From Polyangiaceae bacterium (GTDB taxonomy: Bacteria; Myxococcota_A; Polyangia; Polyangiales; Polyangiaceae), in the NCBI GenBank assembly GCA_947475525.1, contig CANJMI010000024.1, positions 1 through 64,000 of the forward strand: a DNA stretch of 64,000 bases. Reading direction: 5' to 3'. Position 1 is the stretch's first letter. Every line of letters starts with the position of its first letter. Both the position numbers and the translations under genes were made by a program. The notes under the pieces are model-generated. The model was not told the origin of the DNA and ran no database searches. It worked only from the letters and a program-made list of their open reading frames with translations. Shown one piece after another: positions 24,172-31,482 of this stretch.

Positions 24172-25959
24172 CTAACTGATGAACGCGCGCGTCTTGGACT
24201 CGTGCTCGTCGAGCAGCTTTTCGATGCTCGAGATCGAGTTCTCCACGGAGTCGCGCACCATCTGAACGAGAGCCGTCGCCGAAGGGGCCTTCAGCGCGTC
24301 GTAATAACGCTGCCGTTCGCTGTGGTGCATGATTGCCGGTGGGAAACCGCCGCGCATCAGAATCAAATTCATCAGCAAGCGCGAGACCTTACCGCTGTCC
24401 TTCGGGAACGGATAAATCCGCGCGAGGTCGTAGTGGGCTTTCGCGGCGAGCTTGAGCGGCCCGACGGACTTCGCGGTTTCGGGTGCGGCGAGCCAATCCG
24501 TCAACGTACGGAGCCTCAACGCGATCTTGTCGGGCGCTGCGTACTCGTGGAAGTAGAGCCGATGCTGCGGAATGTCACGGCGGTACTTGGCCGTCTTGAT
24601 GTCACCTTCGTCGGGGTGGAGCATCACGTAGAGCGTGCGCACGAGGTCGAGGGTGATCGGCGTCCGCTGCTCCACGACCATCTGTCGCACGAACCCGATC
24701 GCTTCCTGGTTGCGCTTGATCGCCTGAAAAATCGGGACGACGCTCGAGTCGAGGTGGCTGACATCCACGCTGTGGAACGCGCTGCGCAGCTCGTCGAAAG
24801 TGTAGATCACGCCTTCGAGGCCGGTGTCGTGAAACACCCATGACATGTCGAAACTATCGTTGTAGGTCTTGATAAATTCAGTCGATTGACGACGCAAACG
24901 CGTTTCAATCGAGGCCGCGCGCTCTTCGAGCGAAGGCAGTTTCGGCAGCTCCTTGACGGGCAGAGGAATGCTTACCGCCGGCGGCGTGGCGGCGCGTGGC
25001 AGAGCTTCGGTGCGGGGCCCACGTCGCGCCGCCCGTCCGCCGTCCTCGTCGTCGTCATCATCCGAATCGGCTTCGTCTTCGTCTTCGTCACGATCTGCTG
25101 CCGAAGTCGGACCGTCCTCGTCGAAGGCTTCGGACTCGCGGTCCTCGTCGTCTTCGTCTCCAGCGTCGCGCGGCCGACGACGAACTTCGCTCCCGCTCTC
25201 GGGCACCTCGTCGTCAGCGCTACCGCGTTTTGGTTTTGCGGACGTCTTCGTCGGCTTGGTGAGTGTCGGCTTGGTCAGTGGCGCCGGGGCGACCTTTCCG
25301 CCTTTGGCGGGTGCGGCCGCAGGATTGGCCTTGGACTCGGTGCCCTTCTTGACGGCCGACGTCGTGGGTTTCGGTAGGCTCCGCGTTTGAGGAGCCACGG
25401 CCGTGAGGGTCACCTTCGGCTTGGCTGCGGGGACCGATTTTTTCGGCTTCGCTGCGGGAACGGATTTTTTCGGCTTCGCTGCGGGCACGGATTTCTTCGG
25501 CTTCGCTGCGGGCACGGATTTTTTCGGCTTCGCTGCGGGCACGGATTTCTTCGGCTTCGCTGCGGGCACGGACTTCTTCGGCTTCGCTGCGGGCACGGAC
25601 TTCTTCGGCTTCGCTGCGGGCACGGCCTTCTTAGGCTTCGCTGCGGGCACGGACTTCTTCGGCTTCGCTGCGGGCACGGCCTTCTTAGGCTTCGCTGCGG
25701 GGACCGGCTTCTTCGGCTTCGCTGCGGGCACGGCCTTCTTAGGCTTCGCTGCGGGCACGGCCTTCTTAGGCTTCGCTGCGGGGACCGGCTTCTTAGGCTT
25801 CGCTGCGGGCACGGCCTTGTTCGGCTTCTTCGGCTTCGCTGCGGGCTTGTTTGCCTTCGCGGCCGCCTTCGCGCGCGTGCCCTCTGCGCTCTTGCCCAAC
25901 GGCTTTTTGGCCGACGGTGCGGGGCGCGCCTTGCTTTTGGCGGTCTTGACTTTGCTCAC
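24172..25959 (-). CDS. Fic-fold protein with degenerate active site and histone-H1-like N-terminal repeats
   Basis: About 595 residues from GTG 25959 (a TTG 18 bp upstream is also possible). The N-terminal 200 residues are Lys/Ala/Pro-rich, with about 15 copies of AAKPKKxVP, like eukaryotic H1 tails and myxobacterial DNA-binding tails. An acidic Asp/Glu tract of about 60 residues follows. The C-terminal 230 residues match Fic proteins (TFDELRSAFHSVDVSHL, LVRTLYVMLHPDEGDIKTAKYR). The catalytic HPFxDGNGRxxR reads YPFPKDSGKVSR at residues 516-527: the essential His is Tyr and the phosphate-binding Asp-Gly-Asn is lost. Likely a pseudo-Fic acting as a binding module on DNA. Confidence 0.75.
   Translation of the reverse strand: MSKVKTAKSKARPAPSAKKPLGKSAEGTRAKAAAKANKPAAKPKKPNKAVPAAKPKKPVPAAKPKKAVPAAKPKKAVPAAKPKKPVPAAKPKKAVPAAKPKKSVPAAKPKKAVPAAKPKKSVPAAKPKKSVPAAKPKKSVPAAKPKKSVPAAKPKKSVPAAKPKKSVPAAKPKKSVPAAKPKVTLTAVAPQTRSLPKPTTSAVKKGTESKANPAAAPAKGGKVAPAPLTKPTLTKPTKTSAKPKRGSADDEVPESGSEVRRRPRDAGDEDDEDRESEAFDEDGPTSAADRDEDEDEADSDDDDDEDGGRAARRGPRTEALPRAATPPAVSIPLPVKELPKLPSLEERAASIETRLRRQSTEFIKTYNDSFDMSWVFHDTGLEGVIYTFDELRSAFHSVDVSHLDSSVVPIFQAIKRNQEAIGFVRQMVVEQRTPITLDLVRTLYVMLHPDEGDIKTAKYRRDIPQHRLYFHEYAAPDKIALRLRTLTDWLAAPETAKSVGPLKLAAKAHYDLARIYPFPKDSGKVSRLLMNLILMRGGFPPAIMHHSERQRYYDALKAPSATALVQMVRDSVENSISSIEKLLDEHESKTRAFIS
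25415..25819 (-). repeat. 27-bp tandem repeat encoding AAKPKK(A/S/P)VP, about 15 copies
   Basis: Near-identical 27-bp units differ mainly at the codon for the seventh residue (Ala, Ser or Pro). Several neighbouring copies are identical at the nucleotide level, indicating recent expansion. The start and end are approximate to a few bases. The repeat is open on the opposite strand too (GFAAGTDFF), but that reading is a shadow. Confidence 0.9.
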
Positions 25960-26121: not shown

Positions 26122-29100
26122 TCACGAATCAATCGCAATCCCAAGCCGCTGGCGAAGGCCGAAATACTTGGGATCCACGGAAAATAGAGTGAGTTCCTTG
26201 ATTCTGTCGCGGTGTGGAATCGCCGCGCTCGCCTCATCGGACCCCTTGATCATCTCGCACGCGAACTCCAGGTCGTGGCAAACCACGAAGCCGGCACGGT
26301 CGGCTGACAAGTCGATCCCGGCGACCCATCGCTTGAGATCGATAGAGCCCCCTTGCAAGAGTTTGGTGACCAGGCTCGTGAGCTGTTCGCGCGCCGGTCC
26401 GTCGATCGCCGGGCGGATCGCCTGGCCGTTCTCTTTCACCGTGCTCTCGAGCTCTGCTGCGACCGGGAAGGCGTCGTGTACCAAGCGAATAGCCCCAAAT
26501 AGCCACGCGCGGAGCCCCGTTCCCGTTGGGACGAGGTGCCGGACGTAGAGGCCGGGACGGTAGTAGGTCATGTGGCGAGCGGCGATGAACGCGCCGGCCT
26601 GAGTCGGCAATCCGGTCGCCAGCGCGGCGTGGCCGAGCATGATCGACGGTGGCGTTGAATGCAGGAAGCCGATGCAGCCAGGAGCCTGCGGGTTATGGAG
26701 GGTTGGCGGAGGCGTCATGCCGAGCACGCCGGCCGCGTAGAAGAGGGTCTGCGGGATCGGGTACGCGAACGACTGGAGGTCCACGGCGTCGCCCGGGTGG
26801 AGGCCGAGTTGTTCGAGTGACTTGGCATTCCGAGCGATGATCGCCGGCTCGATGAGCTGGAAGATCTGCGTGAGGATGGGATCGACGAGCTCGTGGGTCA
26901 GCACGGTTGCCCAGTCCTCCGCCGACACGGCCGTCTTCGCTTCGGCCGACGTTTCCGCACGCATCCGTCCGTAGAAACGGTCTTCGTCGGGTTCGGCCGA
27001 CTTCATCACGTGGAGTGCCTGGCAGGTGCACCACGCCGGGTCGGGCTCCTTCTTGTGGGTGTAGAGCTTGCGGAGTGCGCGATAATTTGCAGGATTGAAT
27101 GGGTCGCGCCGCAGCAGTTCGTGTTGGGATACCAGCGCCTTGTCGGCAAACTGGTCGAGGTCGCTCGCGTAGATCTCCGCGAGGGCAGCCGAGCGCGCGA
27201 GGTCCTCCGGGGCAAGGTCGCGGGCCTTTTCGAGTTGGGCCACAGCGGCATCGACGCGCTCGAGCTTTTCCTTAAAAACATGGGCAAGCCGGTCGTGGAG
27301 TTCGATTCGGCGGGCCGGCTCGGACGCCTTCTCGGCGCGCTCGAGCTGTCCTTGGAGCAACTCGGCGACGTCCTCCCAGTCTCCTTTGCCCTCACGAGCT
27401 TCGATCGAATCGGCCACGGCCTTTTCGCTCTCCGGATCGAGTTCGAGAACGCGCGCAAGCAGGCTGAGTGACTGGTCGTAGTCGTTGATTTGACGGAGGG
27501 CGATTCCGGCGGCCGTGTGGATGTACTTGGCCTTCTGCTTGGGCTCGTCGATGCTTTCGGCGAGCTTGACGACGACGTCGAGCAGCTTTGCCCAGTCTTT
27601 CTCCTCGGAGTAGAGGCGCATCAAACGCGTGAGCACGCGCCGGTCGTCGGGTCGTTCTTCGAGCGCGGCCACGAGGCTCTTTGCAGCCCGAGTCGAGTCC
27701 TTGATGTGGGTCGCAAGAACCTCGCCCATCTCGATCAGCAGCGTCGCGCGGTTTTCTCCTTCGGCGACGTCGAGCTGGCGCTGTTTTACGCGCAAGACGT
27801 CTTCCCATGAGTTTGCCGCCTCGTGGGCTCTCACGAGTTCTTCGAGCGGTGTCGTCGATAGCGGCAAGAGCTCGGAAGCTTCGACGAGTAGGGCGATAGC
27901 CTCGCTCGGACGGTCGAGGAGACGCAGCGCCTTGCCTCGCTGCAACACGGCCTGCCCGCGTTCTTCGCCTTCGAGTGTCGCTCCGAAACGTTCGAATAGT
28001 TTGTCGAAGGTTTCCGCTGCACCGCGGGCGTCGCCCGAATCGAGCTGCACCCGAGCCGCGCGCGAAAGGGCCCCGTGGTCGTCGGGGGCGAGCTCGAGCA
28101 GCGCGTGCACGGTGCTCATCGCCCGTTCGGTCGAGCCGGTTCGAGCGAGCGCGTCGATGAACTGAACGAGGAGTCGCTTCGCATCAGGCTTCGCCAGGGC
28201 ATCGAGCCGCGTCGAGAGCACGGCGTAATGCGACGCAGCCTCGTGGAACTGGTCGCGGTCGAAGGCGATGTCTCCGAGTAGGAGGAGTGCGCCCGCATGC
28301 CCTGGGTCGGCGTCGAGCGCCTTCATGGCGACGTCGCGCGCGCCGTCTGCGTCATTGAGCTTGTCGCGCTTCAGCATCGCGAGCTCGTGGTAGAGGCGAG
28401 CCTTCGCGAGCTTGCCGTCTTTGCGCTCGATCTCGGCTTCGATCAGCTCGGCCGCGCTCGTCGCGTCGCCGCGTGCGAGGTACGTCCTGCGGAGCGCCTC
28501 GGATGCGACCGGGTTTTCGGGCTGAGCTTCGAGCGCGAACTTGTAGCGTTGAATCGCTCCGTCGCGGTCTCCGTGCTGCTCGAGGATATTGCCGGCACGA
28601 TTCCATTGTTCGGCCCGCGCGTCCGGGGACTCGGCCTTTTCGGCGAGCGACTCGACCGCGGTGAGGGCCGCCATGGCGTCTCCCATTGCGGCTCGGACAT
28701 GCGCAAGCGCGTCGAGAGCCGCGGCGTTCTGAGGCTCGATCTGTAAGATCGCCTCGTAGGCGTGCCGGGCCCGCTCGGGCGAGCCAATTTGTTGCAAGAG
28801 GATGCCACCTTGCGCGAGCAGGAGTTGCACGCGGCGTGTCGGCTCGGCGGCCACTTTGAGCGCGCGGTCGTAGAGCACACTCACATCGTCCCAGCGGTCG
28901 AGTGCGCGGTAGTGGCGCATCAGTGCCGTCAATGCAGCTTCGCGGCTCGCGTCGAGCGCAAGCACCTTCTCAAGGGTGTCCGCGGCCTTGGCGTGGTCGA
29001 GGAACTCTTCGTCGTGAATGCCCGCAATTCGCTCGAGAAGCGCGATTTTTTGGCGCGGCGTTGCGCTCATCGTCACCTGTTGCTCGAGGTTTACGAGCAG

Positions 29101-31482
29101 CTCCGAATAGCGGCCGGTGCGGCTGTAGACGCGGTCGAGACCGCGAATAGCAGCGAGGCAACCGGGGTCGAGCTCGAGGGCCAACGTGAAGCGCCGTTGT
29201 GCTTCCGAAAAGTCGGTGAGATTGTCTTCGTAGATTTCACCGATCCGCGCGAGCGTCTCGGCGCGTGCGGTTCCCGTAAAGGCCTCGGCCTGCCGCTCGA
29301 GGAGCTTGACGTAGCCGGCCCAGTCTCCGTTGCGCTGGTAGAGCCGCGCGAGGGCGTCGACGGTTTGATGGTGCCCAGGATCTTCCGCGAGATTCACCTC
29401 GTAGAGGGCGCGTGCGCGGCCGACGTCGTTCAGGCGGGTCTCAAGGGTTTCGGCGGCTTCTGACCGAAGGTCACGAGCCCGCTGCGGAGTCACGGCGCGA
29501 TCCGCGCGGGTGACCAGCACGGCGATGAGCTCGTTCCACTGTTGTGCTTTTCGGTAGACGTCCGTCATGCCCTGAAGCGCGCCTTCGTGGGCAGGCTCGG
29601 CGGTCAAGACGGTGTCGAAGCATGGCAGCCCAAGGTCCGGGCGGTTGATCTTCTCGATGTACCAACGGCCGAGTCGCATGAAGAGCGCGATTCGCGTCTC
29701 TTGTGGCAATCGTGGATGTGCGGAGACTTCGTGGAGTTCACGCATCGCCTCGGCCCAGAGGCCCATGTCCAGACCGGCGGTGCGCTCGAGATCGTCTGCG
29801 TAGACGTCGTTTTGAACGTCCTGCGCCAACGCTTGCGCGAAGGCGAACGCCGCCTGCTCCTTGTCGTCGAGCGGCCCCGCATAGAGCTGCCCGATCTTGT
29901 TCAAGGCACGCGCACGTTCGCTGTGGCTCGGGTTGTTCTGGCTCACTTCGAGAAGCTTTTCGACGAGCTCGTCGAGCTTGTCTTGCGCTTTGAGCGCCGC
30001 CTCGTAGCCAGTCTGTGCGACGTCGTCGTTGGGGTCGATCGCGAGGATCGCTTTGAACGCGTCTTCCGCGGCTTGATGGTTCTTGAGCTTGCTGTCGAAC
30101 AGGCGCGCGGCCCGGAAAAAGAGCCCCTTCTTTGCCTGGCTGGCTCGGTCGCGAGCGGCGTCGCCTTTCGCTTCGCGGACAGCTGCGCTCTCTTCGCCTT
30201 CCGCCGCGAGGCGGGCTGCGTCCTCGACATCGAGCATTTCGGCCGCAATCAAAAAGGCCTCCGCGACCTTCTGTGGATCCGCGCGGCGCTCCAACGTGAG
30301 CTCGAGCGAGATCGCCGACTCGGCATCGTTCGGATCTGCCACGAGCGCGTCGACAGCTGCCGTCAGCTCCTCTTCTCCGATGGTGCTGCCCCCTTGGTCG
30401 AGTGGACCGAGGACTTCCAAAATCGCGTCCAGGCTGGGTCGAACGGCCGGGTTTTTGTCCAGCAACCGCGCGCAAAGATCGCTCAAGGGTTGAGCGACCC
30501 AGCCCTTCGGGGCAAGCTCGATGGCACGCGACGGCTCGCGGGATGCGCTGTTTAGCGCGAGGTCGGCCGCGGACGTGCCTTCGATCGGCGGCTTGCCGGT
30601 CAAGAGCTCGAAGAGCACCGCGCCAAGGCCATAGAGGTCGCTCTTCGTGGTGCTGCCCTGGCCCTTGAACTGTTCGGGCGCGAGGCTCTTGACGCGATTG
30701 GCACTCGCGGAGTCGATGTCGGAGTGAATCCAGGCCGACCACAGGAGGTCGCCGCCACCGTCGATAAGCTCCACGCGCGTCGAGCCGTCTTCGGTCTTGC
30801 CGACGAGGATGTTCTCGAGCTTCACCGCACCGTGCGGCAGCTTTCGAGCATGAAGTGCGCGCAACGCGGCCACGACCGCGTGCAAAATCGGGCGCGCCTC
30901 GTTGATGTGAAGTGCTCCGCTGCGGCCGATGCGCTGCGCGAGTGGGCGCCCGTCGAAAGCGTCGTAAGCGACATAAGGTTTTCCGTCGACGATCCCGGCC
31001 GTGATGTTGGCAGGCAGGTTCGTGGCACCGAGCGATGCCGCGAGGCGGTTTCGCGTCAGGAACCGGTGCACCGAGCTCATGTCGTGGACGGCTGCGGCGT
31101 GGAGCACCTTCAAGGTGACGCTCACGTCGCCGCGCTGGGCGGCATAGACGGTCCCGTTGGCACCGGCTCCGATTTTGCGGGTGATTCTGAGGTCACCAAA
31201 CGTGTCGCCGACTCTCAAACCGACGGGCGCACGAAGCACCTCGTCGATGATCTTGGAGAGCTGGGAGGACGCGTCGCTCTTGGTGCCGAGGACGGCTTCG
31301 ATCAGCGCGGCGACGGCGTCCCGTTGCTGGCAATGGTCGGTTAGCGCGCGCGCAAACGAGGCGGTCGATGCGGTTCCGCCGACCTCGCGAGGCTCGAAGC
31401 CGAGCACTCGGCTCGACAGGTCCATCATTTCCGCGAGCGAGTAAAGTCGCTCGAGCTCTCCCCGAATCAGTTCGATCGACAT
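26122..31482 (-). CDS. Very large pseudokinase with TPR repeats
   Basis: 1786 residues. Residues about 95-360 are a Ser/Thr kinase-like domain: glycine loop GAGANGTVY (106-113), VTLKVL with Lys125, and SLAPEQF (APE) with SDLYGLGAVLFELLTG. The catalytic HRDxKxxN reads HGAVKLEN (217-224), so the catalytic Asp is Ala219, and DFG is DGG (241-243). Phosphotransfer is therefore doubtful. Residues about 370-1500 are tandem helical TPR-like repeats (ALDADPGHAGALLLLGDIAF is typical). The last 300 residues are a helical domain that I do not recognise. No signal peptide or membrane helix, so it is probably a cytoplasmic scaffold. It stands alone, 116 bp downstream of the FtsB-like gene. Confidence 0.85.
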   Translation of the reverse strand: MSIELIRGELERLYSLAEMMDLSSRVLGFEPREVGGTASTASFARALTDHCQQRDAVAALIEAVLGTKSDASSQLSKIIDEVLRAPVGLRVGDTFGDLRITRKIGAGANGTVYAAQRGDVSVTLKVLHAAAVHDMSSVHRFLTRNRLAASLGATNLPANITAGIVDGKPYVAYDAFDGRPLAQRIGRSGALHINEARPILHAVVAALRALHARKLPHGAVKLENILVGKTEDGSTRVELIDGGGDLLWSAWIHSDIDSASANRVKSLAPEQFKGQGSTTKSDLYGLGAVLFELLTGKPPIEGTSAADLALNSASREPSRAIELAPKGWVAQPLSDLCARLLDKNPAVRPSLDAILEVLGPLDQGGSTIGEEELTAAVDALVADPNDAESAISLELTLERRADPQKVAEAFLIAAEMLDVEDAARLAAEGEESAAVREAKGDAARDRASQAKKGLFFRAARLFDSKLKNHQAAEDAFKAILAIDPNDDVAQTGYEAALKAQDKLDELVEKLLEVSQNNPSHSERARALNKIGQLYAGPLDDKEQAAFAFAQALAQDVQNDVYADDLERTAGLDMGLWAEAMRELHEVSAHPRLPQETRIALFMRLGRWYIEKINRPDLGLPCFDTVLTAEPAHEGALQGMTDVYRKAQQWNELIAVLVTRADRAVTPQRARDLRSEAAETLETRLNDVGRARALYEVNLAEDPGHHQTVDALARLYQRNGDWAGYVKLLERQAEAFTGTARAETLARIGEIYEDNLTDFSEAQRRFTLALELDPGCLAAIRGLDRVYSRTGRYSELLVNLEQQVTMSATPRQKIALLERIAGIHDEEFLDHAKAADTLEKVLALDASREAALTALMRHYRALDRWDDVSVLYDRALKVAAEPTRRVQLLLAQGGILLQQIGSPERARHAYEAILQIEPQNAAALDALAHVRAAMGDAMAALTAVESLAEKAESPDARAEQWNRAGNILEQHGDRDGAIQRYKFALEAQPENPVASEALRRTYLARGDATSAAELIEAEIERKDGKLAKARLYHELAMLKRDKLNDADGARDVAMKALDADPGHAGALLLLGDIAFDRDQFHEAASHYAVLSTRLDALAKPDAKRLLVQFIDALARTGSTERAMSTVHALLELAPDDHGALSRAARVQLDSGDARGAAETFDKLFERFGATLEGEERGQAVLQRGKALRLLDRPSEAIALLVEASELLPLSTTPLEELVRAHEAANSWEDVLRVKQRQLDVAEGENRATLLIEMGEVLATHIKDSTRAAKSLVAALEERPDDRRVLTRLMRLYSEEKDWAKLLDVVVKLAESIDEPKQKAKYIHTAAGIALRQINDYDQSLSLLARVLELDPESEKAVADSIEAREGKGDWEDVAELLQGQLERAEKASEPARRIELHDRLAHVFKEKLERVDAAVAQLEKARDLAPEDLARSAALAEIYASDLDQFADKALVSQHELLRRDPFNPANYRALRKLYTHKKEPDPAWCTCQALHVMKSAEPDEDRFYGRMRAETSAEAKTAVSAEDWATVLTHELVDPILTQIFQLIEPAIIARNAKSLEQLGLHPGDAVDLQSFAYPIPQTLFYAAGVLGMTPPPTLHNPQAPGCIGFLHSTPPSIMLGHAALATGLPTQAGAFIAARHMTYYRPGLYVRHLVPTGTGLRAWLFGAIRLVHDAFPVAAELESTVKENGQAIRPAIDGPAREQLTSLVTKLLQGGSIDLKRWVAGIDLSADRAGFVVCHDLEFACEMIKGSDEASAAIPHRDRIKELTLFSVDPKYFGLRQRLGIAIDS

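What the first reader, a model, noticed from the sequence alone, without database searches (positions are those of the whole stretch)
24172..25959. Pseudo-Fic domain fused to a histone-H1-like repeat tail
The C-terminal region keeps Fic secondary structure and flanking motifs, but the catalytic HPFxDGNGR has become YPFPKDSGK: the essential His is Tyr and the anion-hole Asp-Gly-Asn is gone. It is joined to about 15 copies of AAKPKKxVP, the kind of basic tail that binds DNA, and to an acidic tract. An inactive Fic module placed on DNA-binding repeats is an architecture I do not know of. It may recognise AMPylation targets or nucleotides without modifying them. Active-site loss is seen in the sequence; the DNA link is inferred from the tail.
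Basis: partly seen in the sequence, partly recalled or inferred. Interest (0 to 1): 0.75.

Follow-up and report, generated by a model that had tools for sequence, protein, structure and literature searches.

The report
Ancient dead Fic enzyme, basic tail
This gene encodes a protein with the fold of Fic enzymes, which attach nucleotides to other proteins, but its catalytic site is dismantled; relatives throughout one myxobacterial class keep the same dismantled form, so it seems to have been kept for another job, and one family has added a long DNA-binding-like tail to it.

Summary
Window 24172-25959 (-) encodes 595 aa: a Lys/Ala/Pro-rich tail (net +71) with 14 exact AAKPKKxVP units, an acidic linker (-21), and a full Fic core (Pfam Fic E 1.1e-10; AlphaFold pLDDT 90.5; Z 27 to human FICD). 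The catalytic His is Tyr516; the metal-binding Asp, the Asn and the first Arg are gone too.

It is not isolated decay. A profile finds the gene in 142 of 144 sampled genomes of the class and in 42 genomes of other classes. In 130 aligned rows the His position is Phe, Tyr or Trp in 128. Family rows form one branch against 16 His-bearing Fics (100/99, motif columns removed), show low dN/dS, keep the inhibitory Glu and last motif Arg, and have gained new conserved residues. One early loss of catalysis is the simplest reading. The long basic tail came later: 36 of 60 complete N-termini on the Polyangiaceae side, 0 of 61 elsewhere.

Best reading: a non-enzymatic Fic-fold binding module, tethered to nucleic acid by the tail in Polyangiaceae. 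Its partner is unknown; a new chemistry (as in AvrB) is not excluded. Four relatives at least 90% complete lack the gene, so it is not indispensable everywhere.

The parts
24172..25959 (-). complete gene, GTG start, 595 aa plus stop
25219..25959 (-). N-terminal Lys/Ala/Pro-rich basic tail, residues 1-247, net charge +71
25414..25828 (-). 27-bp tandem array encoding AAKPKKxVP (14 exact protein copies, 15.4 DNA copies)
24934..25218 (-). acidic linker, residues 248-342, net charge -21
24175..24933 (-). Fic-fold core, residues 343-595
   Evidence: AlphaFold pLDDT 90.5, pTM 0.87 on residues 329-595; Z 27.2 to FICD 6i7g over 242 residues
24358..24660 (-). Pfam Fic/DOC match, residues 434-534
24811..24828 (-). 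remnant of the class II inhibitory motif, D378-T-G-L-E382-G; Glu382 aligns with FICD Glu234
24532..24597 (-). flap region, residues 455-476, with gained conserved residues P464, H466, R467, Y469, H471
24379..24414 (-). degenerate Fic motif Y516-P-F-P-K-D-S-G-K-V-S-R527

Best explanation
A vertically inherited, catalytically dismantled class II Fic-fold protein. SHOWN by computation: predicted full Fic fold; loss of the His, the acidic metal ligand, the Asn and the first Arg of the motif; the altered form as one branch among the sequences compared; low dN/dS; retention of the inhibitory Glu, the second Gly and the last Arg; new conserved residues in the flap and inhibitory helix; a long basic tail limited to one lineage. 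INFERRED: the domain no longer transfers a nucleotide. Its inhibitory Glu (382) and last motif Arg (527) stay as a structural lock, and the remodelled pocket and flap bind a conserved cytosolic partner (a protein strand or a phosphate-bearing ligand), so that it works as a scaffold or switch. In Polyangiaceae the Lys/Ala/Pro-rich tail tethers this module to DNA or another polyanion, raising its local concentration on the nucleoid.
For: Fold. Motif loss in 130 rows: His position F 79, Y 46, W 3, H 1, L 1; last Arg 130 of 130; second Gly 129; inhibitory Glu 128 plus 2 Asp. One branch against 16 His-bearing Fics, 100/99, motif columns left out. Spread: 142 of 144 class genomes; 42 of the 100 matching genomes in the phylum sample of 282 lie outside the class. 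dN/dS 0.126 against the nearest congener, 0.306 against the next, 0.021-0.243 in 15 other pairs. Residues conserved here but different in the six nearest His-bearing Fics, such as Y141 (46 of 46 rows; Ala or Ser in 6 of 6) and D50 (42 of 46; Ser in 6 of 6). Within the class the flap ranks 8th of 226 windows in conservation. Precedents: the authors conclude that BepC acts through its Fic domain by protein binding rather than catalysis (PMC7842960, passages); [quoted passage not shown]
Against: No partner, ligand or phenotype is known. No neighbour was conserved across the loci compared (largest cluster 17 of 82). Four relatives at 99, 98, 93 and 91% completeness lack the gene. Tail length varies widely among relatives, so the tail could be nearly neutral. 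The flap ranks only 50th of 226 when other classes are included. AvrB, whose motif is also divergent, proved to be an enzyme.
Confidence: 0.55

Rival explanations
1. Repurposed enzyme: the Fido fold kept its anion-binding nest and evolved a different chemistry (for example glycosyl or other diphosphate-donor transfer), as AvrB did. New residues (Y141, H138, R139, H143, E144, D193, K196 of the domain) would replace the lost ones.
For: AvrB, with a divergent motif, is a rhamnosyltransferase (PMC10866546, passages). The second Gly and last Arg, part of the phosphate site, are kept. Flap His, Arg and acidic residues are highly conserved within the class. FICD's pocket accepts isoprenoid diphosphates (PMC12974487, abstract).
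Against: H138 and R139 are each absent in 12 of 130 rows and H143 in 17, so this set is not phylum-wide; the Mg-binding acid is gone in the window; AvrB itself aligns far more weakly (Z 12.5) than FICD (27.2).
Confidence: 0.2
2. AMP or AMPylation reader: the closed pocket still binds adenine nucleotides or AMPylated proteins and reports on them without turnover.
For: Inhibitory Glu, last Arg and the R..YY segment shared with the nearest His-bearing Fics are kept.
Against: The Asp that holds the Mg in FICD (Asp367, PMC8373988, passages) is Lys in the window and varies in the family. In the window's genome (98.9% complete) only two other Fic-family hits were found, Doc-like by my reading and one of them cut before its motif, so no canonical class II writer is evident there.
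Confidence: 0.15
3. The basic tail is a near-neutral low-complexity expansion by repeat slippage and has no DNA-related role; only the core matters.
For: 27-bp units about 90% identical to each other; tails from about 20 to over 470 aa among relatives, with different repeat sequences; 19 of 60 complete N-termini on the Polyangiaceae side have under 60 aa.
Against: Every complete tail of 100 aa or more is strongly basic (net +21 to +138); none is neutral or acidic. Two same-genus copies cut by contig ends (L002, L003) show a net-acidic visible part, like the window's linker. A start of the form M-A-[AV]-[KR]-K recurs in Sorangium and its relatives.
Confidence: 0.3
4. Isolated decay, sequencing error or a dying toxin remnant.
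For: Loss of catalytic residues alone would look like this; 10 of 145 match rows contain a stop, and three genomes have the gene in two pieces.
Against: The same form in 129 of 130 rows and low dN/dS; the 10 rows with a stop still have open frames of 260-574 aa, so the stop lies near a match end.
Confidence: 0.01

Closest known systems
FICD/HYPE and class II Fic AMPylases
   Same: whole Fic core including the helix that carries the inhibitory Glu; Z 27.2, phmmer E down to 1.5e-17 for the C. elegans homologue; Glu234 and Arg374 equivalents kept
   Different: no His363, Asp367, Asn369 or Arg371 equivalents in the window; no TPR or membrane segment in the chain; S/T of the inhibitory motif is Asp
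BepC of Bartonella (Fic domain thought non-enzymatic)
   Same: a Fic domain thought to act by binding, with a positively charged tail in the protein
   Different: BepC keeps His, Gly-Asn-Gly and both Arg and is an injected effector; here the site is dismantled and the gene is chromosomal
AvrB (Fido fold with a divergent motif)
   Same: Fido fold, divergent motif
   Different: AvrB is an enzyme acting on a plant protein and structurally more distant (Z 12.5)
CbFic2 of Coxiella (DNA-binding class II Fic)
   Same: class II Fic joined to a DNA-binding part
   Different: CbFic2 has an intact HPFDDGNGR motif and a helix-turn-helix, and is active
CarD/CarG of myxobacteria
   Different: two proteins, unrelated folds; here pseudo-enzyme and basic tail are one chain
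Doc clade D2 (His to Gln) of Khater and Mohanty 2015
   Same: earlier report of Fic/Doc sequences without the catalytic His
   Different: Doc-like, motif otherwise kept; the section read describes nothing like this family

Membership tests
Fic/Doc superfamily (Pfam PF02661) | profile match above the curated cut-off | tested here: met
   40.6 bits against 24
Fic/Doc superfamily (Pfam PF02661) | Fic fold | tested here: met
   predicted model
active Fic AMPylase | catalytic His of HxFx(D/E)GNGRxxR | tested here: not met
   Tyr in the window; 1 His in 130 rows
active Fic AMPylase | acidic metal ligand, Asn and first Arg of the motif | tested here: not met
   K192, S194, K196 of the domain in the window
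active Fic AMPylase | nucleotide transfer activity | not testable with these tools
   needs biochemistry
class II Fic | N-terminal inhibitory motif (S/T)xxxE(G/N) | tested here: inconclusive
   Glu/Asp-Gly kept in 130 of 130 rows, but S/T is Asp (124) or Glu (6)
histone-H1-like tail | long Lys/Ala/Pro-rich low-complexity region | tested here: met
   69 K, 58 A, 48 P in 247 residues
histone-H1-like tail | DNA binding | not testable with these tools
   needs a binding assay

The most novel reading that the evidence does not exclude
A phylum-scale family in which the Fic fold was converted once, early in Myxococcota history, from a protein-modifying enzyme into a housekeeping sensor or scaffold with a new conserved pocket (or a new chemistry), later wired to the nucleoid in Polyangiaceae through an H1-like tail.
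Probability: 0.35. Interest if true: 0.8.

Novelty: new variant of a known kind. Interest (0 to 1): 0.62.

Why it matters
Fic proteins are usually sporadic and enzymatic (general knowledge, not from a call). A mostly single-copy, vertically inherited Fic without its His, kept across a class, would be a clear case of a pseudo-AMPylase with a housekeeping role and a natural system for asking what the Fic fold can do without catalysis. The natural series of short-tailed and long-tailed orthologues makes the role of the H1-like tail directly testable.

Tried and rejected
Isolated decay and sequencing error were rejected by the orthologues. A toxin-antitoxin role was considered: no partner gene is shared by the loci compared. 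Neighbours gave no clue: RecN-like (16 of 82 loci), RibA-like (14), RsmH/MraW-like (11), kinase-TPR (8) and MeaB-like (7) clusters belong to different clades; many loci have short flanks, so these are lower bounds. The names are my reading of the sequences, except MeaB and kinase-TPR in the window, which Pfam supports.

My first motif regex missed the Pro-Trp forms and picked a wrong stretch in L033 and L133; aligned columns replaced it. A FastTree of the rows printed only 0.596 for the family branch after re-rooting; the careful tree without motif columns gave 100/99. Six Doc-like loci with a canonical-type motif (L165, L168, L169, L173, L176, L178) and four in which the regex found none were left out of the trees; looked at afterwards, L166 and L177 are Doc-like with Gln for His, L172 has His (HPFAGGNGR), and in L171 I found no motif. 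None of these four scores better with the family profile than with a profile of the His-bearing Fics.

Five relatives without a match were searched again with the profile and still had none; of the two class genomes missed, G095 has a fragment at a contig end and G123 only a weak match. G027 had only a weak partial match and was not searched again. PADLOC candidate family PDC-S04 and SoFic match at domain level; no defence context was looked for.

Literature: the listings show no paper describing this family, but several list only the best of many hits (15 of 246, 10 of 107, 8 of 63), one search was swamped by unrelated hits, and the library lacks most subscription papers. Outside the phylum only plasmids were searched: 61 records matched, and in the 20 listed the identity is at most 29.6%; of the 7 fetched, 5 have the canonical motif and 2 have His with one changed residue. 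Residue pairing with FICD rests on the phmmer alignment; the structural aligner printed ranges only. The tail itself was not folded. In one search a missing family excludes nothing.

Full report
WHAT IS THERE. The gene is 24172-25959 on the minus strand, 595 codons from GTG to TAG. Residues 1-247 are a basic tail (69 K, 4 R, 2 E; net +71) with 14 exact AAKPKKxVP copies in a 27-bp tandem array. The degenerate DNA pattern for this repeat has 14 exact matches in the window's genome, all here. Residues 248-342 are acidic (net -21). Residues 343-595 are the Fic core. Third-position GC is 0.785 in the tail, 0.663 in the linker and 0.81 in the core.

FOLD. Pfam Fic scores 40.6 bits against a cut-off of 24. 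phmmer against PDB sequences puts 11 FICD-type chains and one Bacteroides Fic protein at 1.5e-17 to 6.4e-15. An AlphaFold model from 44 aligned sequences has pLDDT 90.5 and pTM 0.87. Foldseek ranks FICD first (4u0u, E 3.2e-10), and VIA-align gives Z 27.2, 2.5 A over 242 residues, to FICD 6i7g. The match covers model residues 13-264, so the helix carrying the inhibitory Glu is included.

ACTIVE SITE. In the phmmer alignment the window's Y188 of the domain (Tyr516) falls on the FICD motif His, K192 on the acidic residue, S194 on Asn, G195 on the second Gly, K196 on the first Arg, R199 (Arg527) on the last Arg, and E54 (Glu382) on the inhibitory Glu. With FICD numbering (inferred from the chain positions) these are His363, Asp367, Asn369, Gly370, Arg371, Arg374 and Glu234. 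In FICD, Asp367 holds the Mg, His363 is the putative general acid of deAMPylation and Glu234 the gatekeeper (PMC8373988, passages). Of these three only the gatekeeper remains.

FAMILY. A single-protein search finds a match in 54 of 59 genomes (own genome included) at E up to 1e-3; one, G027, is weak and partial, so 53 are convincing. The profile finds the gene at E up to 1e-20 in 142 of 144 sampled genomes of the class (Polyangia by my inference from record names), including 91 of 91 that are at least 90% complete with at most 5% contamination. One match in 139 of the 142, two in the others. In a phylum sample it is in 100 of 282, of which 42 lie outside the class. Against this: five relatives without a match, four of them at 99, 98, 93 and 91% completeness, had none with the profile either, so the gene can be lost. 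Ten of 145 match rows contain a stop codon; their open frames are 260-574 aa, so the stop lies near a match end. In G153, G313 and G378 the gene is in two pieces. In the window's genome two other Fic-family hits exist, both Doc-like by my reading.

CONSERVATION OF THE ALTERED SITE. The motif was examined in the loci held, not in every matching genome. 130 aligned rows (the window's own sequence is in twice, as WIN and L001; identical domains and those under 180 aa were dropped) give at the His position F 79, Y 46, W 3, H 1, L 1. The one His (L095) sits in HPFARHSGK, without the Asp and Asn, inside the family. The following Pro is in 129, the second Gly in 129, the last Arg in 130, Asn203 in 130, the inhibitory Glu in 128 with 2 Asp, Gly55 in 130. 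The loop varies by clade: xxDSGK or xxHSGK near the window, PW-type in other orders, PFDERTG and PFRRNPG in other classes.

ORIGIN. With the motif columns removed, 46 family rows (L095 included) and 16 His-bearing Fics separate on one branch with 100/99 support, in 100% of 200 bootstrap trees. Of the 16, 14 have a canonical motif; L190 and L194 have His with one other residue changed. Several of the 16 have long branches and the tool warns of false joins among them; a FastTree of the same rows printed 0.596 on the family branch after re-rooting. One loss at the base is the simplest reading. dN/dS is 0.126 to the nearest congener (L002), 0.306 to the next (L003), and 0.021-0.243 in 15 other pairs (Nei-Gojobori, high dS in some).

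GAIN AS WELL AS LOSS. Against the six nearest His-bearing Fics, the family keeps E54, G55, R132, H181, P189, G195, R199, N203, R221, Y224 and Y225, but has switched or gained, among others, S45, D50, P136, H138, R139, Y141 and H217, each in at least 80% of 46 rows. Y141 is present in 130 of 130. Within the class (110 rows) the flap ranks 8th of 226 windows in conservation; over all 130 rows it ranks 50th. In canonical Fics the flap registers the target protein (PMC7842960, passages). This is what suggests a conserved partner rather than decay.

TAIL. Taking the first ATG (or else GTG/TTG) of each open frame as the start, a tail of at least 100 aa and net charge of at least +20 occurs in 36 of 60 complete N-termini on the Polyangiaceae side (grouped by locus number; includes family f8 and unnamed bins), 0 of 41 in the rest of the order and class (two f1 rows, L096 and L097, fall in this set) and 0 of 20 in other classes. 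Long tails are K/A/P-rich or KEKER-like. K/A/P-rich DNA-binding domains, H1-like in some species, are known in myxobacterial CarD (PMC9304148, passages).

MECHANISM. Shown by computation: fold, site loss, conservation, new conserved residues, tail distribution. Inferred: no nucleotide transfer; a binding function through the remodelled pocket and flap; tethering by the tail. BepC's authors conclude that a Fic domain can act by binding without catalysis. AvrB shows that a Fido fold with a divergent motif can be an enzyme of another kind (PMC10866546, passages). FICD's pocket also accepts isoprenoid diphosphates (PMC12974487, abstract). Nothing here decides between scaffold, sensor and new enzyme; I put the scaffold or switch first because no complete new catalytic set is conserved across the family.

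NOVELTY. His-less Fic/Doc sequences have been reported (clade D2, His to Gln; PMC4454073, section 6). I saw no description of this family in the listings searched. I file it as a new variant of a known kind: a Fic-fold pseudoenzyme family, with an H1-like tail in one lineage.

Noticed in passing
26122-31482 (-): 1786-aa protein with a Ser/Thr kinase domain and many TPR repeats (Pfam), 162 bp upstream of the gene on the same strand; a similar protein lies upstream in 8 of 82 related loci, 5 of them Sorangium.
   Followed up: partly
L158, 1501-1740 (-): A Doc-like protein of the same genome reads TRAFIDGNKR, with Arg where the catalytic His is expected.
   Followed up: partly
L166, L177: Doc-like proteins of relatives read NQPF(I/V)DGNKR, Gln for His, like the reported clade D2.
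   Followed up: no
L095: One family member has His at the catalytic position (HPFARHSGK) but lacks the Asp and Asn.
   Followed up: partly
L119, L121-L123, L125-L128, L133-L135: In these loci of other families of the class the gene is divergent from an RsmH/MraW-like gene, in 9 of the 11 followed by an FtsI-like gene, as at the head of a cell-division cluster (names by my reading).
   Followed up: no
L126, L132, L134, L140, L142, L145, L146, L149, L151-L156: A GTP cyclohydrolase II (RibA-like) gene follows on the same strand in 14 loci, 11 of them in other classes (name by my reading).
   Followed up: no
G003, G006, G032, G053: Four relatives at 91-99% completeness, G003 of the window's own genus, lack the gene.
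   Followed up: partly
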